Source: Akkermansia muciniphila
Lineage (GTDB): Bacteria; Verrucomicrobiota; Verrucomicrobiia; Limisphaerales; SXQI01
Direction: 5' to 3'
Length of the DNA stretch: 44,645 nt
Assembly: GCA_945867235.1 (NCBI GenBank)
Contig: CAMBHS010000004.1
Location: 1 to 44,645, forward strand
Of this stretch, positions 13,401 through 40,728 are shown one piece after another; position 1 is the first letter of the stretch; each line of letters starts with the position of its first letter. The notes beneath the pieces are model-generated. The model was not told where the DNA came from. It was given only the letters and a program-made list of their open reading frames with translations, and did not search any database. A program made the position numbers and the translations under genes.

Positions 13401-16400
13401 CACCATCCATATCGCTGTCGCCGACATGGTTTACTGGAGCGACGGTCGCTGGGGTCGCTACGCCGGCGGAGGTGGATCAAGCCTCGAACTGATCGACTCG
13501 CATTCTGACGGTCTGCGAGCCGCGAACTGGGCGGATTCGGATGAGACCAAAAAATCGACATGGTCCACGGTTACTGTCACCGGAGTGCTCGATCATGGCA
13601 TGGGTGGGTATAATCCGGACCGTCTGCACATCCTCCTGCAAGGGAACGCCGGGGAACTGCTTGTGGACGACGTGGAAGTCGTGACAGGAATCACCGATGT
13701 GATGAATAATGGTGGGTTTGAAACAGGAGCAGGCCAAGCCGCTACGAGCTGGGTTTTTAATGGCAACCATAGCCTATCAGGAGCTGATTCGACGGGTGCT
13801 GCCACAGGACTTCGCTGCCTGCACGTGCGAGGACAAGGGGATGGGGATCCAGGAATCAACAGCATCCGGGCGGTATTAAAAACGGGATTGAACGCGGGCG
13901 CAACCGCGACCATTCGAGCAAAAGTCCGGTGGCTATGCGGCACACGCGAGGTCCTGTTCAAACTGCGCGGGGGTTGGCTGGAACTGGCCGCACGAATTCC
14001 AATCCCATCGAACCTAGGCACCCCAGGTTTGGTCAACAGCCGAGCCGTAGCGAATACAGGTCCTGCCGTTTACGACGTGACCCATTCCCCAGCATTGCCG
14101 ATCGTCAACCAAGCCGTCGTCGTGACGTGCCGCGTGTCAGACCCAGACGGTCTGACCACCCTCAGTCTCCGTTACCGAATCGAGCCAGCCACCACCTTGA
14201 CCACCGTCACGATGCGCGATGACGGCAACAGTGGAGACGCCGTCGCGGGTGATGGAACCTATTCAGGCACGATCACCGGACGAGCCGCCGGAACCTCGAT
14301 CGCCTTCAAAATCGTAGCCACCGATGGCGCAGGAATCCAGATGAGCACCACCTTCCCGGGTGCCAATCTGATGCCGGTCGGACAACCCTCCTCCGAGGCT
14401 TATATTCGTTGGGGCGACACGATCCCTTGGGGCAACTTTGCGCACTACCACCTCTGGAACTCTCAAGGCAGCGAAGCCTTGAGAGCCAACGCTCTGAATA
14501 ACACCTACCGCGATGCCACCCTCGTTTACGGAACCTCGCGCGTTCTCTACAATGTCGGATTCCGAGACAAGGGCAGCCCTTATCATGGGGGTGGGGGTAG
14601 TTTTTCAGTGGTGAATGGAAAGGAAGAACCCCTCCTAGGCGTGACGGAACGTGTCTTCCGAAGCACAGGCAACGGGGGCGCGGAATCTACGGGTCTTCGC
14701 AACCAAATGAGCATGTGGATCGGCCGCCAGATGGGGATCCCTTACCTTCACTCTCACTACATGCAGTTGTTTCGCAACGGAGGACAGGTTTACAACATCT
14801 CGCAGGATGAAGAGTTTCCCAACGGCGACTTTGTGCAGAGTTGGTATCCCTCACCCGAAGAAGGCGATCTTTACAAAATAGCGATCTGGTTTGAGTTCAA
14901 CGATGATAACTCAGGGTTCGGAGGAGCCGGAGCGACCCTCCAAGAATTCAGGACTACGGGTAACGCCTTTAAACTCGCACGCTACCGGTTTAACTGGCAA
15001 ACGCGCGGCTACCAAGGAACCGTCAATAATTACTCCAACATTTTCAACTTGGTGAAAGCCGTCAATGACCAGACCCCAGCGTTCGCCGCGAACCTGCTCA
15101 ACCAAGCCGACATCAACGAATGGATGCATGTGTTCGCCTTCAACCGCCTTCTGGGAAACTGGGATGCGTGGACCCTGGGCGGCTCACAAAACATGTATGC
15201 CTACAAACTGCCCGGAAACACTTGGAAACTGGTTCCTTGGGACATCGATTTCACGTTGGGTGATGGGGGTGGCGTGAGTGACGCGATCATCCAGGGCGAC
15301 CGCCTTCATGATACCCCAATCTTTCGACGGATGATCTGGCGCGCCTACCAGAGGGCCTCCAAGTTCGCACTCGACCCCGCCCGTTACACCGAGGTAATCG
15401 ACGCTCGCCGGAGTAGCTTGGTGAAAAACAACATCGGCCTTACACCGCCCAATGTCGTTTCTGCATACATGGTAGGGCGCAAAGCGTTTATCGATGGGCA
15501 AGTTAAGGCCAACGACGTCGCTCAATTCAGCATCACCAGCAATGCCGGGGGCAACTACAACTCCACCACGTCCAGCACCACCATCACAGGTAAGGCACCC
15601 TTTGCAGTAGTAAATGTTGAGGTCAACGGCATCCCCTACCCTGCCACATGGACCGATCAGAACACCTTTTCCACGGTCGTCCCACTCACCGGATCCACCA
15701 ACATCCTCACGATCGCAGGCGTGGATGCCACCGGTGCGACCCTCGCGGGCACCGCAAAAACGATCACGGTCAAGTATTCAGGCGCCGTGCAACGCGTGCA
15801 GGATTACGTGATGATCAACGAGATCCAATACAACCCCGTCGCGACCCAAGGCTCGTTCCTCGAGTTATTCAACCGGTCCACTTCCACGGCCTTTGACCTC
15901 TCGGGTTGCCGATTGGATGGGGTCGGCTATACCTTTCCCGAGGGATCCCTGATCCAACCTGGAGGCTACCTAATCCTTGCAAAGAATGCAGCCGCGTTCG
16001 GCCTCGCCTACGGCACGACGATTTTTGTTCATGGTGAGTTTCCAGGATCACTAGATGCCGATGGAGAAAGTCTAAAACTCATCAAACCCAACGGAAATTT
16101 GGGTGGCACCACCGATCTTCTCATCAGCGATGTCCGTTTCAACGACAATCTCCCTTGGGCCACTAATGCCGCCGGATTCGGACCGTCGCTGCAGTTGATC
16201 GATCCCCTGAGAGGAAGTTACCGCGTGGCCAACTGGGCCGCGACCCCGACCAACTCCACCAGTCTCGTCACTCCCGGCCAGATCAATAGGGGAGTGAAAC
16301 AAACTTTGGCCGTTTTCCCAGAGGTCTGGATCAACGAGGTTCTGCCCAACAATGTGACAGGACCGCTTGATAACACGGGCCAGAAGGAGCCATTCATTGA

Positions 16401-19400
16401 ACTTTACAACGCAAGCATCGGCACGGTCGATCTCTCGGCTCTTTACCTGACCGATAGCTATACGAATTTAACTCGTTGGCAGTTCCCATCCGGAACTGTC
16501 ATTGGTGCGAAACAATTCCTCGTGGTCTGGGTCGATGGGCAACCGGAGCAAACCACCACCAATGCGCTGCACGCCTCCTTCAGACTCAACGCGACCAACG
16601 CGTCCGTTGCCCTGACGCGTCTCCAAGGGATCGCCAACACGCCAGCTGTTCTCGATTATTTGGATTACAATCAAGTCGCCCCGGGACGAAGTTTTGGCAG
16701 CTCGCCCGATGGCGAACCTCGGAACCGTCGCTCCTTCTTCAATGTCACTGCTGCGGCAACCAACAACGCAGCCTTTCCGGAGATCGCGCTCACGATCAAC
16801 GAATTCATGGCTGGAAACACCAACACGTTGATCAACCCATCCACAGGAAAATACGACGATTGGTTCGAGCTTCACAACGCTGGCACCAACGAGGTGGACC
16901 TAACCAGCTACACCTTGACCTCGATTCTGACCAATGCCAGCCAGTTCACAATCCCTACCGGATACGTGCTTCAGCCGGGTGGGTTCCTGCTGGTATGGGC
17001 CGATAAGAACACCAAGGCCAATTCCCCCACCAACACCGATCTGCACGTCAACTTCAAGCTCTCCAAATCCGGCTCGCAAATTGGCCTATTCGCACCCGAT
17101 GGTCAACTGGTCGATAGCGTGACATTTGGCGAACAAATCAGCAATATCAGCATGGGACGATATCCTGATGGTGATGAAGGCTCGTTCGTGGCTTTCGAGC
17201 TGGCGACTCCGCGAGTTGCTAATCTTTTGGTCGGAGGAAATCGTCCTCCCGCCCTCGCCCCGATCCCACCCCAAACGATAGACGAACAAAATCTGTTAAG
17301 GTTTGAAGTGACTGGAATCGATGCAGACCTTGATCAAACGCTCACATACAGTCTGGGGATTGATGCCCCTCCAGGCATGGAAATTGGAGCGAAGTCTGGA
17401 TTATGCACATGGACTCCGACCGAAGCTCAAGGACCAGGTTTTTACACGGTCACGATCCGAGTGAATGACAACGGCGTTCCGGGACGAGCGGTCAGCCAGC
17501 GCACTACGGTCACCGTTCGCGAAAGCAACCGGCCGCCCAGCATTAACCCCTCGGCAGACCAGACGATTGGTGAAGGAACGAGCCTCGCATTTTTGATAGA
17601 AGGAACCGATGCTGACCTTCCTGCGAACACTCTGAATTACGCTCTGGAACCAGGATTTCCTCTCGGTGTTACGATCAATGCGGCCTCAGGATTGGTGGAA
17701 TGGATCCCGACGGAAAACCAAGGCCCAGGGAATTACGAGCTAACCGTTCACGCATCCGATCAGGCAACACCACCCCTTTCGGTGAGTTCAAACATTAAAG
17801 TTCGGGTCAACGAAGTGAACACCGCGCCGACAATCGATCCGATTCCGACGCAAACCGTCACCGAAGGGAATACTTTGAATTTCATCGGACGGGCGACAGA
17901 TGCTGATCTTCCAGAACAATCGATTTTATTCTCCCTCGATCCTGGATTTCCGGCAGGTGCCAGCGTTCATCCTGTCACAGGAGCTTTTCTTTGGACTCCA
18001 AGAACGGAACAGGTTCCGAGCACCACCACGGTCACGCTTCGGGTGATTGACAATGGAACACCCCAACTTTCAAGCAGCCAGACATTTAGTTTGAGAGCGG
18101 TGAAACCGAATCGCGCACCGGTATTGGGAGATTTGTTAGATCAAACGATTGTTGAAGGAAGCCCATTCGTTTTGACGGTGTCAGCGACCGACCCCGACGA
18201 TCAACAAGGGCTGCGATTCAGTTTGGAGCCGAGTGCCCCAGTGGGTGCCACAATCGACGAAACTACAGGACAAATCTCATGGACACCCACAGAGGTTCAA
18301 GGTCCGTCCACGAATCGGATCACTGTTCGTGCAACCGATAATGGACTGCCGATCAAAAGCAATACCCAATCATTTACAGTGGTTGTCGCAGAGGTCAATC
18401 TATCACCTGTTCTCAACCTGATCACCAACCTGTCGGTTGTGGTTGGGCGCACATTGGCGCATCAGGCGGTTGCAGTGGATCCTGATTTACCATTGAACAA
18501 GCTTCAGTTTTCACTCGGGTTAGGATCACCTGCCGGATTAGCCATTGACGCAAATTCGGGCGTGCTCTCATGGACCCCCACCATGGCGCAAGCCCGGACA
18601 ACAAATAACATCACGGTTCGAGTAACCGATGATGGTGTGCCGGCGAAGATCGCGAGCAGACCCTTTCAAATCATCGTCCAACCATCGACATCGTGGCAGA
18701 AAGTGGTGGCGACTGGAACCTCCTCGAGTTCCAGTCTTTACATCTACCTTGACGCCAAAGGGGATGTTTATATAGATGATTTAAAAATCGTGGCAGGAAC
18801 AGATCCTGATGTGGGAGTAAACCAGTTGCAAAACGGAAACTTTGAGTCGGTGCTATCAGGTCCATGGAATCTTTCTCCCAATCTAACAGGTTCAGCCTTG
18901 GATAATACTCGGGCTTATTCGGGAACCAACAGCCTGCACATCGTGGCGTCGGCTGCGGGTACGACGCGAGCCTCCTCGATCTTTCAGGATATCCTCCCAA
19001 TACTCACTTCTGGAGCAACTTACACTTTGAGCTATTGGTTTTTGCCAAATACAAGCAGCGCAACCCTCACCATGAGACTGTCAGGCTCCGGCATCTCAAA
19101 CACGCAAAGTCTTTCTCCTCCCGCCAACAAATCGCCGGTAATGACCCCGGTTGCGGATCGCACCATCGCTGAACTTACTCCCTACTATTTTCTGAGTTCC
19201 GCTCAAGATGGAGATAACCCTCCGCAATCCCTCACATTTAGCTTAGATGCAGGCGCACCTGTGGGGTTAACGATTCAGCCATTGACAGGTTTGATTCAAT
19301 GGATTCCGACGGAGGCACAGGGATCCTCCACGAATACCGTGACGATTCGAGTTACTGATAGTGGGGTTCCCCCGTTGTCATCAACCACTTCATTCAAATT

Positions 19401-19944
19401 GATTGTGGCCGAGATCAACCAGGCACCGATTTTAAGTGGGATTTCTGATCAAACGATAGTTGCAGGAACTGTATCGAATACAAAAGCCGTTGGAACAGAC
19501 TCTGATTTCCCAACAAACCTTCTCTTATATTCGCTTGATCTGGGATCACCTTCCTACGCCACAATTGATCCCGTAACAGGAATCTTCATCCTGGCTCCCG
19601 GAGGCAATACACCGGTGGCGACAAATGAAATCACGATACGCGTTACCGACAACGGAATCCCTCCGCTGTCAGACAGAAAAACTATTCGAGTGGTCATCAC
19701 GGGCACAACGGAAAAACCTGTGCGCATCAGTGAGATTACGTTTGATCCATCCAGTCAAAAAGTGAAGTTCAGCTGGAATTCTATCGTTGGGAAAAAATAC
19801 AAAGTCACCGTGAATCCTACGGTCAATGATACCAGCGCTTGGGTGAATGTTGCCGAATTGATTGCAGTGGGTGGAACCTCGAGTTACGAAATAAACGTGA
19901 ATTCAGAGGTGCAACGATTCTACCGAATCGAGTTGGCACCCTAA
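10438..19944 (+). CDS. Giant exported protein with PA14, Ig-like, lamin-tail, CotH-like and repeated putative-Ig domains
   Basis: The 3168-aa protein begins with a signal peptide (about 1-25). Approximate order: PA14 (28-195), Ig-like (197-278), SbsA-like Ig (280-377), a DUF1349/concanavalin-like module (378-560), three lamin-tail domains (575-740, 741-868, 875-1035; e.g. 'MINEFLAH', 'VINELMYDP'), a carbohydrate-binding-like module (1041-1180), a CotH kinase-like domain (1320-1690) with 'GNWDAW' and 'WKLVPWDIDFTLG', three more lamin-tail domains (1788-2260), five putative-Ig/cadherin-like repeats (2268-2750; each with a 'TYSL/FSL...G' and 'WTPT-x-AQGP' core), a second binding-like module (2751-2894), two more repeats (2898-3088) and a beta-rich C-terminal domain. 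No LPXTG or PEP-CTERM anchor is seen. It is probably a secreted or surface glycan- or matrix-binding protein; CotH kinases phosphorylate proteins, but the substrate here is unknown. Its stop lies 1 bp from the convergent ribF stop. Confidence 0.85.
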   Translation: MLDCSKRWFSYLAATFLLIPCWMQAQEHGILREVFSGIGGGGVGDLTNSPAFPSSPTTTSIVVTGFEAPTNVEDNYGQRMRGYITPPVTGKYTFWIASDDGSSLYLSTDSDPVNCRLISWVSGWTSSREWTREGNQQSAPITLTAGDNYYIEALQKEGGGGDNLAVRWLRPDGKDEGPIPNEYLLPFGTSFTPPLIVEQPTNTTVVEGQNASFTVKVKNLDSLAYTWSRGGVVIPGAKSRTYTFGPVTLDDNNATFSVSMTNRLGAANSVTAKLTVTPDVTAPVLLSGVNLGASGLELVFSESLSAASLAKLSNFQISGEVAVIAATFGADTKTVVLTTTPMVFGSSYTITVAGLQDRARTPNTMSSPGSLTLLILEFVSQTIGAPITGMIERVATGAYNVSGAGSDIGGGTDQFQFAWAKRTNNFDLQVRVDRVTMTDPFVQAGLMARVGLEGNAAFAGIFGASPQVGSFFESRASLAGTAITTAPVGGFPVNYPQTWLRLRRVGSVFTGFGSLDGKTWVQLGTATITSPTVMYVGLAVTSGKPQQVAIAQLRDYGSTVSTLVGTYTPRGEPIGPSNRRTGLIFSEIMYHPKNPVGILNRLEYIEIYNADSIFEDLGGSTLSGGISYTFPPLFRLEAGECVVIAADPAAIRSVYSITNVVGPFTGSLNASGDTLVFSDTQGAIKLEMTYSPRSPWPIAADGTGHSLTLNRPSYGENDPRAWGLSARVGGSPGVADVLLNTAPNTVMINEFLAHTDDPVFDFIELYNRSTTAVDLSGWFLTDTTRSNLFTIPAGTVLNGRAFISWDQNQLGFSLSAAGERIYLISADGLQVLDAIEFGGQENGVASGRSPDGSDTIRRLTSPTPKVANAAWKVETVVINELMYDPITGLEEDEYVELYNRGTTAVNLAGWRFNEGIEFDFPEGTLLAGGGYLVVAKNKTQLLKNYPQLNDSNTVGDFSGKLNNSTDRLVLTKPDAIVSTNSFGELETNTIHIAVADMVYWSDGRWGRYAGGGGSSLELIDSHSDGLRAANWADSDETKKSTWSTVTVTGVLDHGMGGYNPDRLHILLQGNAGELLVDDVEVVTGITDVMNNGGFETGAGQAATSWVFNGNHSLSGADSTGAATGLRCLHVRGQGDGDPGINSIRAVLKTGLNAGATATIRAKVRWLCGTREVLFKLRGGWLELAARIPIPSNLGTPGLVNSRAVANTGPAVYDVTHSPALPIVNQAVVVTCRVSDPDGLTTLSLRYRIEPATTLTTVTMRDDGNSGDAVAGDGTYSGTITGRAAGTSIAFKIVATDGAGIQMSTTFPGANLMPVGQPSSEAYIRWGDTIPWGNFAHYHLWNSQGSEALRANALNNTYRDATLVYGTSRVLYNVGFRDKGSPYHGGGGSFSVVNGKEEPLLGVTERVFRSTGNGGAESTGLRNQMSMWIGRQMGIPYLHSHYMQLFRNGGQVYNISQDEEFPNGDFVQSWYPSPEEGDLYKIAIWFEFNDDNSGFGGAGATLQEFRTTGNAFKLARYRFNWQTRGYQGTVNNYSNIFNLVKAVNDQTPAFAANLLNQADINEWMHVFAFNRLLGNWDAWTLGGSQNMYAYKLPGNTWKLVPWDIDFTLGDGGGVSDAIIQGDRLHDTPIFRRMIWRAYQRASKFALDPARYTEVIDARRSSLVKNNIGLTPPNVVSAYMVGRKAFIDGQVKANDVAQFSITSNAGGNYNSTTSSTTITGKAPFAVVNVEVNGIPYPATWTDQNTFSTVVPLTGSTNILTIAGVDATGATLAGTAKTITVKYSGAVQRVQDYVMINEIQYNPVATQGSFLELFNRSTSTAFDLSGCRLDGVGYTFPEGSLIQPGGYLILAKNAAAFGLAYGTTIFVHGEFPGSLDADGESLKLIKPNGNLGGTTDLLISDVRFNDNLPWATNAAGFGPSLQLIDPLRGSYRVANWAATPTNSTSLVTPGQINRGVKQTLAVFPEVWINEVLPNNVTGPLDNTGQKEPFIELYNASIGTVDLSALYLTDSYTNLTRWQFPSGTVIGAKQFLVVWVDGQPEQTTTNALHASFRLNATNASVALTRLQGIANTPAVLDYLDYNQVAPGRSFGSSPDGEPRNRRSFFNVTAAATNNAAFPEIALTINEFMAGNTNTLINPSTGKYDDWFELHNAGTNEVDLTSYTLTSILTNASQFTIPTGYVLQPGGFLLVWADKNTKANSPTNTDLHVNFKLSKSGSQIGLFAPDGQLVDSVTFGEQISNISMGRYPDGDEGSFVAFELATPRVANLLVGGNRPPALAPIPPQTIDEQNLLRFEVTGIDADLDQTLTYSLGIDAPPGMEIGAKSGLCTWTPTEAQGPGFYTVTIRVNDNGVPGRAVSQRTTVTVRESNRPPSINPSADQTIGEGTSLAFLIEGTDADLPANTLNYALEPGFPLGVTINAASGLVEWIPTENQGPGNYELTVHASDQATPPLSVSSNIKVRVNEVNTAPTIDPIPTQTVTEGNTLNFIGRATDADLPEQSILFSLDPGFPAGASVHPVTGAFLWTPRTEQVPSTTTVTLRVIDNGTPQLSSSQTFSLRAVKPNRAPVLGDLLDQTIVEGSPFVLTVSATDPDDQQGLRFSLEPSAPVGATIDETTGQISWTPTEVQGPSTNRITVRATDNGLPIKSNTQSFTVVVAEVNLSPVLNLITNLSVVVGRTLAHQAVAVDPDLPLNKLQFSLGLGSPAGLAIDANSGVLSWTPTMAQARTTNNITVRVTDDGVPAKIASRPFQIIVQPSTSWQKVVATGTSSSSSLYIYLDAKGDVYIDDLKIVAGTDPDVGVNQLQNGNFESVLSGPWNLSPNLTGSALDNTRAYSGTNSLHIVASAAGTTRASSIFQDILPILTSGATYTLSYWFLPNTSSATLTMRLSGSGISNTQSLSPPANKSPVMTPVADRTIAELTPYYFLSSAQDGDNPPQSLTFSLDAGAPVGLTIQPLTGLIQWIPTEAQGSSTNTVTIRVTDSGVPPLSSTTSFKLIVAEINQAPILSGISDQTIVAGTVSNTKAVGTDSDFPTNLLLYSLDLGSPSYATIDPVTGIFILAPGGNTPVATNEITIRVTDNGIPPLSDRKTIRVVITGTTEKPVRISEITFDPSSQKVKFSWNSIVGKKYKVTVNPTVNDTSAWVNVAELIAVGGTSSYEINVNSEVQRFYRIELAP

Positions 19945-32586: not shown

Positions 32587-34041
32587 TCAAGACGGCGCCA
32601 CAGGGCGTCCGGTTTTCAATCCAACATTCTGTTCATAAGAGCCAAGTTTAATTTCTTGGCTCTTATTTTTTGCAGTCAATTCCTGGGGCAACCGTGCCAG
32701 GCGCATTTCAGCCAATGTCGCGTGGGATGATTTTGGAAACATTGTCGAAATTCGGGTGAGGGCGGAACGAGCCGCCGGCATGTCACTGGCTAATTTAATG
32801 TGCAGGTCAGCGAGCTTATTAAGCCAGACTGCAATATTTTTACCGGATTGGTGAGGAGTCGCGATCAATTGTTCCAGTTGATCTCCAGCCATGTCGATGC
32901 GTTGATAATGGTCAGCATAAATGGCGGAAAGTCGTTCCCGAGCTTCGTTATCACCCGGGTAAACATTAAGGTGCTGCACCAATTGATGGGCTAGTTCGGT
33001 TTGATCCTCCGAGGGTGGAGGAGGGAGTGGTTTACCGAGCAATCCATAATTTTCCATCGGCGGTTTGAGGGTCACTTTGTAACTTGCAGCCCTGACCTCT
33101 AAGAATTCAGGGGTCGCCAGATGCGAGATGCGTTGGATTGCGTGATGAGATTGTTGAGTATTTGGAAACAAATACGTGATTCGTTCCAAGGCCTGACGGG
33201 CGGCGACGACATCCTTGTTGTATTTGATTTGCCAATCCGCCACTTGATTCAATGCAAAGGCAATATTGGTTGGACGATGGTGCCCGTGACCCACGATCTG
33301 TTCAATCGCTTCAAGAGCGTCCTCGAGGCGACGCAAATCATTGGCCATTATTTCCGTCTTTAACATCCACCCTTCGTAATCTTCCGGAAACTGCAACAGT
33401 TGTTCCTCCACTGCCTCCAGTGCTTTGTCATATTCACCTCGGAGACGTTTCGAACGGGCAATGGAATAAAAGGGTCTTGCCTCAATCTCCGTGTCCCCTC
33501 CATCAAAAAGATTTGTCAACGGTTTTGCAAACATGGCTCCGATATTCGGGGCCCAAATAATCCCCATGCTTAATCCACAAACCGCACCGGCGATCGGAAC
33601 GATGAATGCTGAAGCCATGTCACCACTCGGGGAGGTCAACGCAACCCACAACGCAACCCCAGAAAAAAAGACGGTCAACACCCATTTAAAAACCAGACGC
33701 CCTTTATCCTCTGTTTTTTTTAAGGATCGAAAAAGGATACAGGCCGTTACGGCAAATGCCGCGACCATCATCAGGAGACCGAACACATATGAAAAAAATG
33801 TCCTCATAAATCGACGAAGCGGATTTCGGTCGTGCCGGAACTCTATCCCCAACCCGCCAACCCGCAAGCTTGTCATCGTGAAGAATTTTGATCTAGGGTC
33901 GAACTCGATGGGTGCAACCTTGTCATTTGCACCTAAAACAAAGAACCCCAACAGTTGAATTGAATCAATCTGCTGGGGAGAAATGGTCGATTTTAAACGC
34001 TTAAACAGCCAATAAAGAATGAGCTTTTTCAGGATCCACAC
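32587..34041 (-). CDS. Membrane protein with C-terminal tetratricopeptide-like repeats
   Basis: The 484-aa protein has an N-terminal region (about 1-80) of unknown fold, three predicted membrane helices (about 85-107, 118-136, 144-168), and a long helical region from about 190 to 440. That region has TPR-like units such as 'AEARPFYSIARSKRLRGEYDKALEAVEEQLLQFPEDYEGW' (split motif, about 188-227) and two 'VAARQALERI-x-x-LFP' type units. The start is a GTG at 34041, inside the 3' end of aceE (41-bp overlap), suggesting co-transcription; an internal start near the ATG for 'MTSLRVGG' cannot be excluded. TPR proteins of this build usually act as scaffolds. Function unknown. Confidence 0.75.
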   Translation of the reverse strand: MWILKKLILYWLFKRLKSTISPQQIDSIQLLGFFVLGANDKVAPIEFDPRSKFFTMTSLRVGGLGIEFRHDRNPLRRFMRTFFSYVFGLLMMVAAFAVTACILFRSLKKTEDKGRLVFKWVLTVFFSGVALWVALTSPSGDMASAFIVPIAGAVCGLSMGIIWAPNIGAMFAKPLTNLFDGGDTEIEARPFYSIARSKRLRGEYDKALEAVEEQLLQFPEDYEGWMLKTEIMANDLRRLEDALEAIEQIVGHGHHRPTNIAFALNQVADWQIKYNKDVVAARQALERITYLFPNTQQSHHAIQRISHLATPEFLEVRAASYKVTLKPPMENYGLLGKPLPPPPSEDQTELAHQLVQHLNVYPGDNEARERLSAIYADHYQRIDMAGDQLEQLIATPHQSGKNIAVWLNKLADLHIKLASDMPAARSALTRISTMFPKSSHATLAEMRLARLPQELTAKNKSQEIKLGSYEQNVGLKTGRPVAPS

Positions 34042-36724
34042 CGAGATCTAGAATCGCTTTGGCAACTATTTCACTTGGCACAACACCCTTTTGGCTCAAG
34101 GCGTATAAGGTGCCGATGACCGTTGATTCGCCATCGATTTCAAAGAAGCGTCGCAGACGTTCCCGTGTGTCGCTTCTTCCAAATCCATCGGTGCCCAAGG
34201 AGAAAAGCCCACCGGGAACCCACGATCCAATTTGATCAGCAACGATTTTCATATTGTCGGAGACTGCGACAAAAACCCCCTGCTCCTGAGCCAGAACTTC
34301 TTCCAAATAGGATTTTCTGGGAGTTTCGGTGGGATGCAGCATGTTCCAACGCTGCGTATTGAGCGCATCATTGCGGAGAGACTTGTAGCTGGTGGCACTC
34401 CAAACATCGGCGCAGACATCGTAATCACGCGCCAATATTTCCTGAGCCTTTAAAGCGGAGCGCATGATCGAGCCACTCCCAAAAATATGGGCTTTGTGTT
34501 TTTTGGTGATGTCACCGACTTTAAATTTGTATAGCCCTTTCAGCACGCCCTCTTCAACCCCTTTTGGCATAGTCGGCATGAGATAGTTCTCGTTATACAG
34601 GGTCATGTAATAAAACACATCCTCCATGTCGTGATACATGCGCTTCATGCCGTCAGCAACGATGATAGCAACTTCATACGAGAACGCTGGATCATAGGCT
34701 AGCATGGAAGGAACCGTGGAAGCCATGAGGAGACTGTGCCCATCCTGATGCTGCAAGCCCTCGCCATTCAGACTGGTACGACCCGAGGTGGCTCCTAGCA
34801 AAAATCCCTTGGCACGGATATCTCCGGCCAGCCAGATTTGATCACCAATGCGTTGGAAACCGAACATCGAATAGTAGATGTAGAATGGCATCATGTTGAC
34901 ACCATAATTCGCGTAAGCAGTTCCGGCGGCGACGAACGAGGAAATCGATCCCGCTTCGGTTATTCCTTCTTCGAGGATTTGACCATCCTTGGATTCGTGG
35001 TAATACGCTGGGTTCCCAATATCCACCGGCTCATAGAGTTGGCCTTTTGGAGAATAGATCCCGATCTGGCTAAATAATGCGTCGATACCGAAGGTGCGAG
35101 CTTCATCCGGCACGATGGGGACAATCAGCCTTCCTATTTCCTTGTGCCGAACGAGCAATGTTAGGATACGCACAAAACTCATGGTGGTGGAGGCTTCCCG
35201 TCCGCCTTGCAGGAGTTCCTTGAAATAATCCAACCCAGGAGTATTGGATGGCTGAGCACGCACCTTTCGAGCCGGAATAAATCCACCTAAATCCTTACGT
35301 CGCTCGAGTAAATATTTAATTTCCGGGCTATCCGATGCCGGACGATAGAAAGGAGTTTCAGCAACTGCTTCGTCACTGATCGGAACTTGGAACCTCGTAC
35401 GGAATTCGCGAAGTTCCTTCTCGTTCATCTTTTTCTGTTGATGAGAGATGTTTTTACCTTCGCCCGCTTCACCTAAGCCGTAGCCTTTGACTGTTTTGGC
35501 CAATATCACGGTGGGTTTGCCTGTAAAGTCGGTCGCAGCTTTGTAGGCCGTGTAAACTTTGCGGACGTCGTGCCCACCCCGTAGGAGCTTTGTTAAGTCA
35601 AAATCGGTCAGATGGTTCACCATCTCCTTCAATTCTGGGTATTTTCCGAAAAAATGTTTCCGAATGTAACTGCCATGCTCGACGGAATATTTTTGGAAAT
35701 CGCCATCCACAACCTCTGACATGCGTTTCGCGAGGAGTCCTTTGCTGTCGGCTTTGAACAATTCATCCCAATCTGTGCCCCAGATCACTTTGATGACGTT
35801 CCAACCCGCACCCAGAAATAGAGATTCGAGTTCTTGGATGATTTTGCCGTTGCCGCGTACCGGACCGTCCAATCGTTGCAGATTGCAGTTGATCACCCAA
35901 ACAAGATTATCCAATCCTTCGCGCACCGGTAGTGTAAGGCAACCCAGAGATTCAGGTTCATCAGATTCACCGTCACCCATGAAGGCCCAAACTTTGGATT
36001 CGCCGAGGGGGAGAAGGTTGCGCGACTTCATGTAACGCATGAAGCGAGCCTGGTAAATGGACATGATCGGTCCAAGACCCATCGAAACGGTGGGGAATTG
36101 CCAGAAATCAGGCATCAAATAAGGATGCGGGTAGGAAGAAAGTCCACCACCTTCGGCTAATTCTTGGCGAAAATGGGCAAGTTGGCGAGTCTCCAAACGA
36201 CCTTCAAGAAAAGCTCGTGAATAATTGCCGGGGGTAGCGTGACCTTGGAAATAAATTAAATCCCCTTGTTGGGTGTCGTTTTGGGCACGGAAAAAGTGGT
36301 TGTAACCCACTTCATAAAGTGTGGCTGAGGAAGCAAAAGTTGAAATATGACCACCCAATCCCATATCGCCGCGGTTGGCGGAAACCACCATGGCCATTGC
36401 GTTCCACCGAATATAGGATTTTAATTTGCGCTCAATGACACGGTCACCCGGGTAATCCGGTTGATCTTCTGGAGGTATCGTATTGACGTAGGCAGAACTC
36501 GTCAGAGTGGGGAAATCGACCGTATCCTCACCCAAACGACGAACCAATCTAGCCAAGAACTCCGCCGTGCGTCCGGCGTCCTGCGTATTCAGAATGTATT
36601 GGGCAACGAAGGACAACGCTTCTTCCTGGCGCGCCAACTGTAATTGGCGTGCTCGCAGGGCTGCGTTCTTTTTCTTCGGGTCTGCAGCCGCAACCTTGCT
36701 GGCATCAATGGTGTTCTCGTTCAT
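34001..36724 (-). CDS. aceE: Pyruvate dehydrogenase E1 component, homodimeric type
   Basis: AceE decarboxylates pyruvate with ThDP and passes the acetyl group to the lipoyl E2, feeding acetyl-CoA. At 907 aa it fits the homodimeric E1 (E. coli 887). Motifs: 'YFQGHATPGNYSRAFLEGR' (about 160-180), the ThDP motif 'GDGESDEPE' ending in 'NCNLQRLDGPV', 'LAKTVKGYGLG' (about 412) and the late 'AGTAYANYGVNMMPFYIYYS' (about 600). I use the ATG at 36724, just after GGAAAG; the frame is open to 36856, but the added residues look non-coding. Genes for E2 (aceF) and E3 (lpd) are not adjacent. The downstream TPR gene overlaps its 3' end. Confidence 0.95.
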   Translation of the reverse strand: MNENTIDASKVAAADPKKKNAALRARQLQLARQEEALSFVAQYILNTQDAGRTAEFLARLVRRLGEDTVDFPTLTSSAYVNTIPPEDQPDYPGDRVIERKLKSYIRWNAMAMVVSANRGDMGLGGHISTFASSATLYEVGYNHFFRAQNDTQQGDLIYFQGHATPGNYSRAFLEGRLETRQLAHFRQELAEGGGLSSYPHPYLMPDFWQFPTVSMGLGPIMSIYQARFMRYMKSRNLLPLGESKVWAFMGDGESDEPESLGCLTLPVREGLDNLVWVINCNLQRLDGPVRGNGKIIQELESLFLGAGWNVIKVIWGTDWDELFKADSKGLLAKRMSEVVDGDFQKYSVEHGSYIRKHFFGKYPELKEMVNHLTDFDLTKLLRGGHDVRKVYTAYKAATDFTGKPTVILAKTVKGYGLGEAGEGKNISHQQKKMNEKELREFRTRFQVPISDEAVAETPFYRPASDSPEIKYLLERRKDLGGFIPARKVRAQPSNTPGLDYFKELLQGGREASTTMSFVRILTLLVRHKEIGRLIVPIVPDEARTFGIDALFSQIGIYSPKGQLYEPVDIGNPAYYHESKDGQILEEGITEAGSISSFVAAGTAYANYGVNMMPFYIYYSMFGFQRIGDQIWLAGDIRAKGFLLGATSGRTSLNGEGLQHQDGHSLLMASTVPSMLAYDPAFSYEVAIIVADGMKRMYHDMEDVFYYMTLYNENYLMPTMPKGVEEGVLKGLYKFKVGDITKKHKAHIFGSGSIMRSALKAQEILARDYDVCADVWSATSYKSLRNDALNTQRWNMLHPTETPRKSYLEEVLAQEQGVFVAVSDNMKIVADQIGSWVPGGLFSLGTDGFGRSDTRERLRRFFEIDGESTVIGTLYALSQKGVVPSEIVAKAILDLGVDPEKAHSLLAV

Positions 36725-36938
36725 CTTTCCAATAAATAACAAAGGCGGAAGGCCATAAAAGCCCGCCGCTGCATCAAGACTGCATGGTGAGTTGGTATTG
36801 GGGAATTCAACTAATCCTGTAACTCTACAATTTTCTAATCCGCAATCCTCCTCCAATCAACTGGGGCAGGATACTACACCCCTACGGGCTTACAAATAAA
36901 AATAATCGAACGAAAATGTTCGCATTAAAATTCTCTCC

Positions 36939-37970
36939 CTAGGGAATTTCAACGATAGCTTTGATGACACCCGTTTCAGGTAGGGTGTAACTCGGGAAAA
37001 TTTCCACAAGATTCTCGAACGGGGTTCGGTGGGTTATCCAATGATCCGTGTTGATCTGCCCCTTTTCGATTAAACTGATAATACGGGAAAAATCCGACGA
37101 CAAAGCATTGCGGCTCGCCATCAAGGTTAACTCCTTGCGGTGCATCACGGGCGCATGTGGAAAACTCAGATGTTGCTGAGTGATTCCCACATAAACAACG
37201 CGCCCTGCAAATCCACAGTAATCGAGAGCGCGACTCATGCTGTTGTTGTTGCCAGTTGCATCAATGACCACCTCAGGCAAGGAGCCATCCTTGGTGCAGG
37301 ATCGTAATCGATCCAAATCTGGCCCGTCTGCTGAAATTAGAATCGTGTGTTGAATTCCCAAGGACCGTTTGCAAAAATTCAATCGAGAAGCATTGATATC
37401 CATCACAATCGTATTTGCGCCGGATAATTTGGCGAATTCGACCACGGACAGACCAATAGGTCCGGCACCAATCACCAATACGCTTTCTGAAGGAGTTGGA
37501 TTGCCGCGATGGATCGCATGGCAACCGATGGCGAGCGTCTCGACCAGCGCGAGTTGATCAAAATTAAGGCGTTGCGACCGATGTAACTTACGGGCAGGAA
37601 CAAGGAATACGGGTCTCAATCCACCATCACAATGAACCCCTAAAGTTTGATGATTCTCACAGCAATTGGTGTAACCACGTTGACAGGAGGAACAATTCTG
37701 GCAGTTGATATACGGCTCCACGGCGCAATGATCCCCCTTGGCCATGTGGGAAACTCCTTCGCCTATTTCCAAAATTTCAACACCAAGCTCGTGCCCGGGA
37801 ATTCGAGGGTAACTAAAAAATGGCATTTTCCCCAAGTAACCTCCGATGTCGGTGCCGCAGATGCCAACACGATGCACACGAACAAGAGCCTCGCCAATCC
37901 CGGGAGAACTGGGATCTGGAATATCAATGGTGCGGAAGGACCGGGGTTGTTCGAGTTGAATAGCTTTCAT
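36939..37970 (-). CDS. Zn-dependent dehydrogenase, L-galactonate/L-gulonate 5-dehydrogenase-like
   Basis: The 343-aa protein is a medium-chain Zn alcohol dehydrogenase. Catalytic Zn ligands are Cys38 ('GICGTD') and His60-Glu61 ('PGHE'); the structural Zn site is Cys90, 93, 96 and 104; the NAD(P)-binding Rossmann motif 'VIGAGPIGLS' is near 170. Several segments ('PFFSYPRIPGHE', 'TNCCENHQTLGVHCDGG', 'VIDATGNNNSM', 'ASRNA') resemble the LgoD-type L-galactonate 5-dehydrogenase, which makes D-tagaturonate; this comparison is from memory. Its UxaE-like neighbour supports it. The start is the ATG at 37970, 1 bp after the stop of the aldo/keto reductase, so it is the last gene of the operon. A sorbitol- or threonine-type dehydrogenase cannot be ruled out. 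Confidence 0.8.
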   Translation of the reverse strand: MKAIQLEQPRSFRTIDIPDPSSPGIGEALVRVHRVGICGTDIGGYLGKMPFFSYPRIPGHELGVEILEIGEGVSHMAKGDHCAVEPYINCQNCSSCQRGYTNCCENHQTLGVHCDGGLRPVFLVPARKLHRSQRLNFDQLALVETLAIGCHAIHRGNPTPSESVLVIGAGPIGLSVVEFAKLSGANTIVMDINASRLNFCKRSLGIQHTILISADGPDLDRLRSCTKDGSLPEVVIDATGNNNSMSRALDYCGFAGRVVYVGITQQHLSFPHAPVMHRKELTLMASRNALSSDFSRIISLIEKGQINTDHWITHRTPFENLVEIFPSYTLPETGVIKAIVEIP

Positions 37971-37971
37971 T

Positions 37972-38904
37972 TCAGTTATTTTTTGCAAGCCCTTCCTGAT
38001 GTCCAAGATTCATAACGGGAGCGAAAATCGATTGAACGTCAGCTAGAAGTTGTTCATCCATCGGCTCGGAAGCCCATTGTGCCCAGTTTTTAATATTCTC
38101 AGGATTTGCACTTCCCGCAATCGTCGTCGCGATGCCTTCATGGGCTAGACTGAATTGCAACGCGAGCTTGGCAATATCTACTCCGCGCCGAGTGCATAAT
38201 GCGGCGGCAGTGCGAGCTGCTTCTTTAACACTTTCAGGCTCCTTCAACCATTTTGGCAGGGGTGCATTCGTTAGGAGTCTCGCACTAAAGGGTCCGGCAT
38301 TCATGACGCCGACTCCTTTCTCTTCCAAATAAGGAATCGTTTCTGTGGCGAAGCGTGTGTTTTGCAGGGTGTATTGGTTGTATCCAAGCACACAATCCAC
38401 ATCTGTTTGATTGAGGATAAATCGAAATATTTTCTGCGGATATCCACTGAAACCAATGAATCGCACCTTGCCCGCCGCAACTTGCTGCCGAAGAGCCGGC
38501 AAAGTTTCATCTACAATCTGCTGCATCTCCACAAATTCGATGTCGTGACAAAGCAGGATATCAAGGTGATCCGTTCCAAGTCGGTGCAAGGTGACGTCAA
38601 TACTTTCGGCGACTCTTCGAGGCGAAAAATCAAAGTGTTGAAGATCGTAGCGTCCCAGTTTTGAACAGAGGAGAAAACTCTCCCGGGGTACATCCTTCAA
38701 TGCCACACCAAGAAGAACCTCACTCATGCCCCGACCGTAAAACGGTGATGTATCAATTAGGTTGAGACCACAATCCAATGCCACCCGAACGGAATTGATC
38801 GCCTCATTCAAGGTGACTTTTCGAAACTCTTGCCCCAACGAGGAAGCTCCGAAACTTAAGATAGGAACATGGAGTCCTGTCCTGCCAAGGGGTCTGGTCT
38901 TCAT
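37972..38904 (-). CDS. Aldo/keto reductase, L-galactose dehydrogenase-like
   Basis: The 310-aa protein is an aldo/keto reductase with the catalytic tetrad: Asp (about 51, 'LIDTSPFYG'), Tyr (about 56), Lys (about 83, 'CSKLGRY') and His (about 121, 'LLCHDIEF'). The stretches 'RTGLHVPILSFGASSLG', 'HLDILLCHDIEF' and 'GKVRFIGFSGYP' closely recall plant L-galactose 1-dehydrogenase and the bacterial L-fucose/L-galactose dehydrogenase-like group. These oxidise the sugar at C1 to the aldonolactone with NAD(P). It lies between a UxaE-type epimerase gene (31-bp gap) and a Zn dehydrogenase (1-bp gap) in one operon. A more general AKR function remains possible; a lactonase gene is not seen. Confidence 0.83.
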   Translation of the reverse strand: MKTRPLGRTGLHVPILSFGASSLGQEFRKVTLNEAINSVRVALDCGLNLIDTSPFYGRGMSEVLLGVALKDVPRESFLLCSKLGRYDLQHFDFSPRRVAESIDVTLHRLGTDHLDILLCHDIEFVEMQQIVDETLPALRQQVAAGKVRFIGFSGYPQKIFRFILNQTDVDCVLGYNQYTLQNTRFATETIPYLEEKGVGVMNAGPFSARLLTNAPLPKWLKEPESVKEAARTAAALCTRRGVDIAKLALQFSLAHEGIATTIAGSANPENIKNWAQWASEPMDEQLLADVQSIFAPVMNLGHQEGLAKNN

Positions 38905-38935
38905 CGGTGTGTCTTAAAATAAAAGTGCGACCGAA

Positions 38936-40207
38936 TCATCCCACAAAAAGAGGACGCAGGTGCCGTTGATAGAGGTTCTCCGTTACATTGCGAGCAACGA
39001 CCGCCTCATGTTTCTGTAAGAGTTTGCTAAATTGCGATCCTGATTTGGCAGCAAGCTTGAAGGCCACATGCAGAAGCTGGCGAATGTTGGCATTGAAATG
39101 AGGATGATCCTGAATATGTCGGATGGAACATGCTACTTTTGTCCCGATGAATGTGGAAAAAGTTTCTTTTGATGGTAGCAGCGATCGATCAATGTTGATG
39201 ACCGTTGCATAGGGGGCGCAAAGCTCATCCACGTGATCCAAGGCCTGAGCGTAAATATCTTTCACGAAATGCAATCCGTCACCACCCGACTCAGCGAGCC
39301 CGATTAATTCTTCGAGCCATGTGGTTCCCGCCGTCTTGATATGGACGCCAGCTCCGGTTCGGTCGAGCGCACGGCGAATGATGGGATAAAGTGAAAATTT
39401 ATCGCTCCCACTATGCACGCTCAATTTAAGATTTGAAGGCAATCCATAGCGATCCACCGCATGGGCGATCACGGCGAGATCATCATTGAATTCTTTTTCG
39501 AACTGATCGATATCCCCCACGTAATCCACGCCTTTATTGAAACGACCCGAAAACTTTGGGGCGATCGTTTGAAGATGGATCCCTTCATCATTAAGCAATG
39601 CCAGAATGACTAGGAGATCCGTGGGCGTTTGTGCCGCGTCGGTTTCATCCATTGAAACCTCGGCGATCAAATTTTTTGCTCCCCCCTTTTTAGCGACGAT
39701 GTGCCGGTAAACACGCCCGGCTTCTTCCACGGCTGTCAGATACTTCGCAGCCACCGCTCCCACATCGGCTGCATTCAGCGGGAAGGCGTGTAAAATTCCG
39801 GGAATCTCCACGGCACCCATTAATTCGGGATGCCTCTCCAAAAATGCATCCACCTTTTCACTCGATGCTGGTTGATTGATGCGGTCCGCCACATCGATTG
39901 TAAAAAAATCGGAACTATTTAAAAATCGATCCACAGTTTCTAAGCGAATGTGGTCGGCATCAACATGCCAATTATTGTTCCACCCAAGCTCCTGCACCGC
40001 AGCGGAGGCTGCGTCATAAACACTTTGTGGATCCGATCCGATGAAGGAATGTTCTCGGTTCGATTTGTTCCATACAGGCACCACCTCCACACCATCAGCA
40101 GCCAACAATCGAAAGGCCTGCAACTGGGCTTTGGCTTGGTGGACGAATCGATCTCCGACTCCGAAAGACAACCGCTCTAAACTCACCATGGAGGCGCACG
40201 TAGCCAT
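38936..40207 (-). CDS. uxaE: Tagaturonate epimerase (UxaE) family protein
   Basis: The 423-aa protein matches the UxaE family, first described in Thermotoga maritima as the tagaturonate/fructuronate epimerase that lets hexuronate degradation skip the altronate branch. Family features are the N-terminal 'LERLSFGVGDRFVHQAKAQ' (about 9-27), 'AEVSMDETDAAQTP' (about 181-194), 'KLSVHSGSDKFSLYP' (about 258-272) and 'HIKTAGTTWLEEL' (about 283-295). Conserved His, Asp and Glu residues in these stretches are candidates for metal binding. It is second in a four-gene sugar operon. The start is the ATG at 40207; the internal Met seven residues in would also fit. Activity on a 6-deoxy analogue is possible. 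Confidence 0.8.
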   Translation of the reverse strand: MATCASMVSLERLSFGVGDRFVHQAKAQLQAFRLLAADGVEVVPVWNKSNREHSFIGSDPQSVYDAASAAVQELGWNNNWHVDADHIRLETVDRFLNSSDFFTIDVADRINQPASSEKVDAFLERHPELMGAVEIPGILHAFPLNAADVGAVAAKYLTAVEEAGRVYRHIVAKKGGAKNLIAEVSMDETDAAQTPTDLLVILALLNDEGIHLQTIAPKFSGRFNKGVDYVGDIDQFEKEFNDDLAVIAHAVDRYGLPSNLKLSVHSGSDKFSLYPIIRRALDRTGAGVHIKTAGTTWLEELIGLAESGGDGLHFVKDIYAQALDHVDELCAPYATVINIDRSLLPSKETFSTFIGTKVACSIRHIQDHPHFNANIRQLLHVAFKLAAKSGSQFSKLLQKHEAVVARNVTENLYQRHLRPLFVG

Positions 40208-40229
40208 ATATTATTAGGATTGAAAATGA

Positions 40230-40251
40230 TTGTCTTGGACAATACAAGACA
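40230..40251. promoter_or_regulatory. Nested inverted repeats before uxaE, candidate operator
   Basis: In the 74-bp gap between the FucU-type gene and uxaE, TGTCTTG-N7-CAAGACA (40231-40251) forms a perfect 7-bp dyad, and TTGTC-N3-GACAA (40230-40242) a second one inside it. The site lies about 23 bp upstream of the uxaE start codon. It fits a sugar-responsive repressor site or an internal hairpin. Confidence 0.4.
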
Positions 40252-40281
40252 GCAGTAATCGTGATATTTTTGCAACCGAAA

Positions 40282-40728
40282 TCATGAGATCCGACAACCC
40301 ATCGTCAACAACACATTGGCCCATAAGGACTGATCCCCTGTCTGTATCGTCAAGATGTGATCGTCGGATTCCACTTGTTTGTAAAAATCCCATTTTGAAA
40401 TAGGAACTAATTCCAGTTTTAAGCCCGCCTCATTCAGTGTTTTGCGAAATATTGACCAGACCTCGGGTTCTCCTTTCGCTGCATACGGGTCGTCACTAGG
40501 TATCCCCATGGTATTCACCGAGTCGATGGTGACTGCACTCAAAATCGCTCTCAGTGATTGTTCAACAGTCACCAACCCAGGAGATAAGTTCAAGCAGACA
40601 ATCTCTGCATGGGGACCCTTTTTTGTGGACGCTGGGTAATTTCCGTCGGCGATGAGAATTTTTGAATGATGTCCACCTCGTCCCAAGATTTCATTAATGC
40701 GTGGATGAATGAGTTGGTGTTTTAACAT
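40282..40728 (-). CDS. RbsD/FucU-family sugar mutarotase, FucU-like
   Basis: FucU-type proteins interconvert the anomers of L-fucose and related sugars; RbsD acts on ribose. This protein (148 aa from the ATG at 40728) starts 'MLKHQLIHPRINEILGRGGH' and continues 'SKILIADGNYPAST', the family hallmark around the active-site His and Asp, with a C-terminal 'SLWANVLLTMGCRI'. Family lengths run about 130-150. I take 40728, although the frame is open to 40809, because the extra residues are not family-like; no good Shine-Dalgarno supports either start. It is the first gene of the putative L-galactose/L-fucose operon and diverges from the EEP hydrolase gene. Confidence 0.8.
   Translation of the reverse strand: MLKHQLIHPRINEILGRGGHHSKILIADGNYPASTKKGPHAEIVCLNLSPGLVTVEQSLRAILSAVTIDSVNTMGIPSDDPYAAKGEPEVWSIFRKTLNEAGLKLELVPISKWDFYKQVESDDHILTIQTGDQSLWANVLLTMGCRIS

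What the first reader, a model, noticed from the sequence alone, without database searches (positions are those of the whole stretch)
36939..40728. Four-gene operon that reads as an oxidative L-galactose (or L-fucose) pathway ending in a UxaE epimerase
Seen: fucU-like, uxaE-like, L-galactose-dehydrogenase-like AKR and LgoD-like Zn dehydrogenase, same strand, gaps of 74, 31 and 1 bp. Chemistry from known families: FucU interconverts anomers, the AKR makes L-galactonolactone, hydrolysis gives L-galactonate, an LgoD-type enzyme oxidises C5 to D-tagaturonate, and UxaE epimerises this to D-fructuronate. The enzymes thus chain without gaps except a lactonase. Inference: a route for algal or plant L-galactose that bypasses the UxaB/UxaA altronate branch used in E. 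coli. By analogy the same enzymes might process L-fucose through 6-deoxy intermediates.
Basis: partly seen in the sequence, partly recalled or inferred. Interest (0 to 1): 0.78.

Follow-up and report, generated by a model that had tools for sequence, protein, structure and literature searches.

The report
L-galactose operon with tagaturonate epimerase
Four neighbouring genes of a Verrucomicrobiota bacterium most likely begin the oxidative breakdown of the rare sugar L-galactose and reshape its acid towards ordinary sugar metabolism; the early steps are known from other bacteria, the branch through the epimerase is the new part.

Summary
The four genes are real, at the stated coordinates and gaps. 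By sequence the AKR groups with L-galactose dehydrogenases, the Zn dehydrogenase is nearer E. coli LgoD than RspB, and the UxaE-like protein keeps the UxaE fold and the two proposed catalytic residues. Loci of Verrucomicrobiota and Planctomycetota MAGs carry a fuller operon that adds an L-fuconolactonase-like lactonase and an IolO-like epimerase; 9 of 80 fetched AKR loci hold all six. All 28 AKR-bearing genomes of 58 searched also have UxaE, against 13 of 30 without the AKR.

Correction: this genome shows no UxuA, UxaC or polyol-type UxaB/UxuB. It has an SDR of the D-mannonate oxidoreductase family beside a GntE-like nickel epimerase, so the likeliest route is L-galactonate, D-tagaturonate, D-fructuronate, D-mannonate, D-gluconate. 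Against this, LarC (cofactor synthesis) was not found in this genome, and a UxaA-type dehydratase was.

Oxidative L-galactose breakdown itself is published (Luteolibacter LG18, PMC12632266); the UxaE branch is a new variant. L-fucose is less likely.

The parts
40282..40728 (-). FucU/RbsD-family mutarotase-like protein, 148 aa from the likely start (longest frame begins 40809)
   Evidence: PF05025 E 8.6e-27 for the 148-aa form; best PDB 4a34 1.7e-8, FucU entries among the 4 hits; gene pairs with AKR in related loci
38936..40207 (-). UxaE-family D-tagaturonate/D-fructuronate epimerase, 423 aa, of the clade linked to the AKR
   Evidence: PF16257 E 1.5e-58; best PDB UxaE 6ilb E 2e-33; model pLDDT 92, top nine PDB fold matches are of this family, TM 0.79-0.81; Glu52 and Asp85 align with Cohnella Glu126 and Asp159; tree
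37972..38904 (-). Aldo-keto reductase, L-galactose 1-dehydrogenase-like, 310 aa
   Evidence: PF00248 E 3.2e-49; the five best PDB chains are all named L-galactose dehydrogenase, E 3e-79 to 4e-66, next best 2e-27; 71-86% identical to 7 related-locus copies
36939..37970 (-). Zn-dependent medium-chain dehydrogenase, LgoD-like (L-galactonate 5-dehydrogenase)
   Evidence: PF08240 and PF00107; E. coli LgoD 38% identity, E 8e-79, RspB 33%, E 4e-49; best PDB is RspB 4ilk, LgoD is not among the hits shown; NCBIfam PRK10083 185 bits, under its cut-off of 376

Best explanation
The operon encodes the upper part of an oxidative L-galactose pathway. FucU speeds anomer exchange; the AKR oxidises C1 of L-galactose to L-galactono-1,5-lactone; hydrolysis (no lactonase in the window; relatives carry one) gives L-galactonate; the LgoD-like Zn dehydrogenase oxidises C5 to D-tagaturonate; UxaE inverts C3 (numbered from the carboxyl) to give D-fructuronate. 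Downstream, on another contig, an SDR reduces D-fructuronate at C5 to D-mannonate, and a LarA-superfamily nickel enzyme inverts C2 to D-gluconate. Shown here: gene families, conserved linkage, co-occurrence, fold, conserved catalytic residues. Inferred: every substrate and the direction of flow. Nothing was assayed.
For: Families and fold. Six-gene operon UxaE, IolO-like epimerase, FucU, AKR, lactonase, Zn dehydrogenase in relatives: all six in 9 of 80 named loci; of the 75 with the AKR called, UxaE 38, Zn dehydrogenase 41, IolO-like 31, lactonase 28, FucU 23, AKR alone 16. Co-occurrence over 58 genomes: UxaE in 28 of 28 with the AKR, 13 of 30 without, Fisher p 7e-7, not corrected for kinship. 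SDR of the D-mannonate oxidoreductase subfamily in this genome, 308.5 bits over a cut-off of 281, orthologs in 49 of 58, a LarA domain within 3 kb in 34 of these 49. LarA-like protein: best PDB 4nar E 2.6e-58; PMC7583248 (passages) names 4NAR as GntE2, assayed for D-mannonate to D-gluconate. Cofactor and catalytic residues named there (R41, H154, E155, K164, H180) are kept by eye in the alignment. L180: AKR divergent beside that SDR; L203: uxaC, a D-galactonate-transporter-like MFS and IolO-FucU-AKR-Zn dehydrogenase in one run, which ties the Zn dehydrogenase to tagaturonate; L183: KDPG aldolase in the run.
Against: LarC was found in 53 of 58 genomes but not in this one, although the three congeners have it; LarB and LarE were not searched. 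A UxaA-type dehydratase is present here and co-occurs with the AKR (24 of 28 against 12 of 30, p 4e-4), which suits an altronate exit. The SDR is not tied to the AKR or UxaE (p 0.15 and 0.11). IolO-like, lactonase and LarA proteins all score under their NCBIfam cut-offs (208/300, 311/400, 175/500). 4 UxaE genomes lack the SDR. The Opitutae runs have the AKR set without UxaE in the fetched stretch. No transporter or regulator lies next to the window operon.
Confidence: 0.55

Rival explanations
1. Altronate exit: the same upper pathway makes D-tagaturonate, but an unidentified reductase (perhaps the SDR) makes D-altronate and the UxaA-type dehydratase at G000:C26 makes KDG, as in LG18 and E. coli. 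UxaE would then bring other keturonates (from L-gulonate or glucuronate) to tagaturonate.
For: UxaA-type dehydratase in this genome, in 24 of 28 AKR genomes against 12 of 30; KDPG aldolase in this genome; this is the exit proved in LG18 (PMC12632266).
Against: No polyol-type UxaB here, 2 of 58 overall; the dehydratase's only NCBIfam hit is galactarate dehydratase, 150 bits under a cut-off of 731; it would not need UxaE for L-galactose, yet UxaE is in 28 of 28 AKR genomes; no UxaC here to supply other keturonates.
Confidence: 0.22
2. L-fucose (or D-arabinose) pathway: the same enzymes act on L-fucose and L-fuconate, and UxaE acts on 6-deoxy ketoacids.
For: FucU and the L-fucono-1,5-lactonase-like gene (best PDB 4dlf E 2e-67, NF052480 311 bits) are fucose families by name; L-fucose is the commoner sugar (general knowledge).
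Against: LguA of LG18 had no activity on L-fucose and high activity on L-galactose (PMC12632266); a KDPG aldolase sits in the L183 run and a 6-deoxy acid cannot become KDPG; only 3 positions are fixed differently between the AKR-linked UxaE clade and the clade that holds the UxaC-linked members; L-fucose isomerase genes were not searched.
Confidence: 0.13

Closest known systems
Dual L-glucose/L-galactose pathway of Luteolibacter sp. LG18 (lguABCDEF, lguG, lguH; PMC12632266, main text read)
   Same: Same phylum; AKR LguA makes the aldonate from L-galactose, Zn-type LguD makes D-tagaturonate; LguG, a 5-keto-L-gluconate 4-epimerase related to IolO, lies next to a gene annotated rbsD, like the IolO-FucU pair of the six-gene operon.
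   Different: LG18 uses LguC/LguB (altronate route); UxaE is not mentioned in the text that I read. Here UxaE is in the operon and no polyol-type reductase is found. I could not obtain Lgu sequences, so orthology is untested.
L-galactose pathway of Bacteroides (Phocaeicola) vulgatus, BVU_0219 and BVU_0222 (Hobbs 2014; seen only as cited in PMC12632266, paper not held)
   Different: Sequences not compared. As recalled, its product enters the ordinary hexuronate route.
Hexuronate network of Thermotoga maritima with UxaE, an SDR mannonate oxidoreductase (UxaD) and GntE2 (Rodionova 2012, seen only as cited in PMC5673643, PMC6353982, PMC7583248; passages)
   Same: UxaE, SDR-type reductase and GntE-like epimerase: the same three lower steps.
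   Different: There fed from galacturonate and glucuronate through UxaC; here fed from L-galactonate, with no UxaC.
E. coli L-galactonate route (LgoD, UxaB, UxaA)
   Same: LgoD-like C5 oxidation (38% identity).
   Different: No polyol-type UxaB here; UxaE in the operon.

Membership tests
UxaE (tagaturonate/fructuronate epimerase) | Pfam model above its cut-off | tested here: met
   199.1 bits, cut-off 27.1
UxaE (tagaturonate/fructuronate epimerase) | Fold of solved UxaE | tested here: met
   Top nine PDB matches, TM 0.79-0.81 by query length, 24-27% identity
UxaE (tagaturonate/fructuronate epimerase) | Glu and Asp of the proposed retro-aldol mechanism (Cohnella Glu126, Asp159; PMC11194214 passage) | tested here: met
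   Window Glu52 and Asp85; Glu in 65 of 66 rows (one gap), Asp in 66 of 66
UxaE (tagaturonate/fructuronate epimerase) | Epimerase activity on D-tagaturonate | not testable with these tools
   No assay
L-galactose dehydrogenase (AKR) | Nearest solved relatives are L-galactose dehydrogenases | tested here: met
   Best five PDB sequences, E 3e-79 to 4e-66; next 2e-27
L-galactose dehydrogenase (AKR) | Activity on L-galactose rather than L-fucose | not testable with these tools
   No assay; discriminating residues not found in the papers searched
LgoD (L-galactonate 5-dehydrogenase) | Nearer LgoD than its paralogue RspB | tested here: met
   37.7% against 33.4% for the window; the same order in 4 of 4 operon copies tried; no wider tree was made
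LgoD (L-galactonate 5-dehydrogenase) | NCBIfam equivalog above cut-off | tested here: not met
   Best model PRK10083, 185 of 376 bits; no model there is named LgoD
Oxidative L-galactose pathway (LG18 / B. [quoted passage not shown]
   Window, gap 1 bp; 41 of 75 named loci with the AKR called
Oxidative L-galactose pathway (LG18 / B. vulgatus type) | Polyol-type tagaturonate reductase for the altronate exit | tested here: not met
   PF08125 absent from this genome; 2 of 58. That LguC and UxaB are of this family is recalled
GntE-type hexonate 2-epimerase (LarA superfamily), downstream candidate | Cofactor-binding and catalytic residues of GntE2 | tested here: met
   By eye in the alignment; positions
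GntE-type hexonate 2-epimerase (LarA superfamily), downstream candidate | Cofactor synthesis gene LarC in the genome | tested here: not met
   0 matches in G000, present in 53 of 58 including congeners G001-G003; the assembly is a 96%-complete draft
Xanthomonas-type oxidative L-fucose pathway | L-fuconate dehydratase in the operon | tested here: not met
   No dehydratase among the operon genes of the window; an enolase-superfamily dehydratase with MFS and SDR lies on another contig, C51, with no fuconate dehydratase named among its hits

The most novel reading that the evidence does not exclude
One enzyme per stereocentre: the six-gene operon plus the SDR-LarA pair form a general converter of hexonates to D-gluconate. 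The Zn dehydrogenase and SDR together invert C5, the IolO-like epimerase C4, UxaE C3 and the LarA-family enzyme C2 (all numbered from the carboxyl). L-galactonate needs C5, C3 and C2; L-gluconate needs all four. This would explain why two different ketoacid epimerases share the operon, and why UxuA, UxaB and UxuB are dispensable. The window copy lacks the IolO-like gene in its operon, so it would be the L-galactose-only form. A still bolder variant, that this UxaE clade stops at retro-aldol cleavage to dihydroxyacetone and tartronate semialdehyde (a tartronate-semialdehyde-reductase-like gene precedes the operon in L138 and L151), I put at about 0.04.
Probability: 0.25. Interest if true: 0.65.

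Novelty: new variant of a known kind. Interest (0 to 1): 0.45.

Why it matters
It puts a plausible function on an operon spread over many uncultured Verrucomicrobiota and Planctomycetota, abundant degraders of algal and plant polysaccharides, and extends UxaE from hexuronate to L-sugar breakdown. If the SDR-LarA exit is right, an L-hexose is turned into D-gluconate by stepwise correction of its stereocentres, with a nickel-pincer enzyme in the last step; Chthoniobacter flavus Ellin428 (L174), a named strain whose locus holds UxaE, the IolO-like gene, FucU, AKR and Zn dehydrogenase, would make this testable.

Tried and rejected
Classical exit through UxuA/UxuB: rejected for this genome. Hydroxypyruvate-isomerase reading of the extra TIM-barrel gene: the IolO model scores 208 bits, the hydroxypyruvate isomerase model 75; TM_0416 is the best PDB match (that TM_0416 is IolO is recalled). 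RspB-type enzyme: LgoD is nearer. Two UxaE kinds: 36 genomes hold the window type and 5 a divergent type. L062 and L066 (divergent) lie in the same AKR run, so the context does not depend on one clade; the divergent type scores higher with the Pfam model (402 and 450 bits against 199). My first gene caller took antisense frames as genes in GC-rich loci; its counts were dropped. Alignment A1 holds two rows read on the wrong strand (L005, L009) and supports no claim. Residues that tell L-galactose from L-fucose in the AKR: nothing found in the listing. Context of the KDPG aldolase in this genome: no sugar-acid genes recognised beside it.
Full report
What is there. The window is contig C4 of a 2.72-Mb draft genome in 199 contigs, 96% complete. 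A contig of a same-genus genome (G002) is identical to a record titled Verrucomicrobia bacterium isolate Pedos-1123, so the source is a Verrucomicrobiota MAG. No NCBIfam model was met above its cut-off by any of the four.

The enzymes. AKR: the five best PDB sequences are L-galactose dehydrogenases (E 3e-79 to 4e-66), with a wide gap to the next. Zn dehydrogenase: 38% identical to E. coli LgoD and 33% to RspB; the order was the same in 4 of 4 operon copies tried. Its best solved relative is nevertheless RspB. UxaE: shorter than the solved enzymes (423 against 490 to 507 residues), but the predicted model (pLDDT 92, pTM 0.90) finds UxaE-family structures in its first nine places. The Glu and Asp of the retro-aldol mechanism proposed for Cohnella UxaE (PMC11194214, passage) are Glu52 and Asp85 here and are kept throughout the 66 aligned relatives but for one gap. 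FucU-like: RbsD_FucU family, weak similarity to FucU structures.

Conserved company. UxaE matches occur in 41 of 58 related genomes, AKR orthologs (67-87% identity, own copy included as 100%) in 28; 5 more genomes have only 40-50% AKR relatives and were counted as lacking it. All 28 have UxaE, against 13 of 30 others (Fisher p 7e-7); those 5 all have UxaE too, so counting them as AKR genomes would not weaken the link. The genomes are related and the test ignores that. AKR and UxaE share a contig in 17 of 28 and lie within 5 kb in 15. Of the 13 UxaE genomes without the AKR ortholog, 8 have UxaC, which fits a hexuronate role there.

My gene caller found the AKR in 75 of them. Beside it: UxaE in 38, Zn dehydrogenase 41, an IolO-like TIM-barrel protein 31, an Amidohydro_2 lactonase 28, FucU 23; all six in 9; the AKR alone in 16. 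Many loci end at contig ends, so these are lower bounds, and some loci repeat genomes of the first set. The canonical order is UxaE, IolO-like, FucU, AKR, lactonase, Zn dehydrogenase (for example L138, L151, L165, L207). The lactonase is nearest to 4dlf (E 2e-67) and to the L-fucono-1,5-lactonase model (311 bits, cut-off 400); the TIM-barrel protein to TM_0416 (9e-35) and the IolO model (208, cut-off 300). Divergent AraC-family genes stand next to several of these runs.

A tree of 72 UxaE proteins puts the window among 50 rows of which 41 come from AKR loci (local support 99), apart from a 15-row set that holds the 3 UxaC-linked rows, 9 with neither and 3 AKR rows (support 83); a third, divergent set of 5 rows also includes AKR loci (FastTree). 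Between 46 rows of the first and 15 of the second only 3 positions are fixed differently at the 80% level. I read this as the same reaction in two pathways; it is not proof.

Downstream. In this genome UxuA (20 of 58 have it), UxaC (15 of 58) and the polyol-type UxaB/UxuB domain (2 of 58) were not found. A KDPG aldolase and a long UxaA-type dehydratase were. The locus L180 shows an SDR next to the AKR; it and its ortholog in this genome score above the cut-off of the D-mannonate oxidoreductase subfamily (314 and 308.5 bits, cut-off 281). Orthologs are in 49 of 58 genomes, and in 34 of these a Lar_N domain lies within 3 kb. In this genome the next gene is such a protein, with 4nar as its best solved relative. 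PMC7583248 (passages) identifies 4NAR as GntE2 of Thermotoga maritima, assayed as D-mannonate/D-gluconate 2-epimerase, and lists residues that I find kept. Hence the proposed exit through D-mannonate to D-gluconate. Against it: LarC is missing here, the SDR is not specially tied to AKR or UxaE (p 0.15, 0.11), and the UxaA-type dehydratase is (24 of 28 against 12 of 30, p 4e-4). The altronate exit therefore stays a serious rival.

Which sugar. L-galactose is favoured over L-fucose by LG18 biochemistry (LguA active on L-galactose, none detected on L-fucose; PMC12632266), by a KDPG aldolase in the L183 run, by the uxaC and galactonate-transporter-like neighbours in L203, and by the near identity of the two UxaE clades. 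The fucose names of FucU and of the lactonase pull the other way, weakly.

What is known. The route L-galactose to D-tagaturonate and on through altronate is proved in Luteolibacter LG18 (PMC12632266, main text read). UxaE, SDR-type mannonate oxidoreductase and GntE2 are known from T. maritima for hexuronates (passages in PMC5673643, PMC6353982, PMC7583248). PMC5507952 (section 12 read) reports L-galactonate loci with lgoD, uxaA and uxaB in Halomonas. I found no text joining L-galactose or L-galactonate catabolism with UxaE in an operon; the 4 papers that hold both 'L-galactonate' and 'UxaE' were looked at by passages or section. The library holds open-licence papers only.

Verdict. The most novel reading left open is a set with one enzyme for each of the stereocentres C2 to C5 of a hexonate.

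Noticed in passing
L120 8095-10734 (G000:C26), also L121-L128 in relatives: Long UxaA-type dehydratases of about 860-1044 aa in the called frames, with the GD_AH_C domain in the middle and a further stretch behind it that Pfam does not name as a whole; ordinary ones of about 515-580 aa occur in other genomes.
   Followed up: partly
L203 3053-4912: A 613-620 aa protein next to uxaC with only a weak UxaE match (36 bits, residues 334-466): a far relative of UxaE of unknown role.
   Followed up: partly
L131 5313-8561 (G000:C51): Enolase-superfamily dehydratase, D-galactonate-transporter-like MFS and an SDR in one run: a separate sugar-acid pathway of unknown substrate.
   Followed up: partly
L173, L178, L190, L191, L209, L214: In Opitutae-type loci the IolO-like gene with the AKR set follows ATP synthase genes, without UxaE in the fetched stretch.
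   Followed up: no
G000 whole genome: LarC missing although two LarA-family genes are present (C167 and C25); assembly gap or a real loss.
   Followed up: no
window 10438-19944: A single 3168-aa open frame on the plus strand.
   Followed up: no
window 34001-36856: Homodimer-type pyruvate dehydrogenase E1 downstream of the operon on the same strand, gap about 80 bp; not conserved beside the AKR in the other loci listed.
   Followed up: partly
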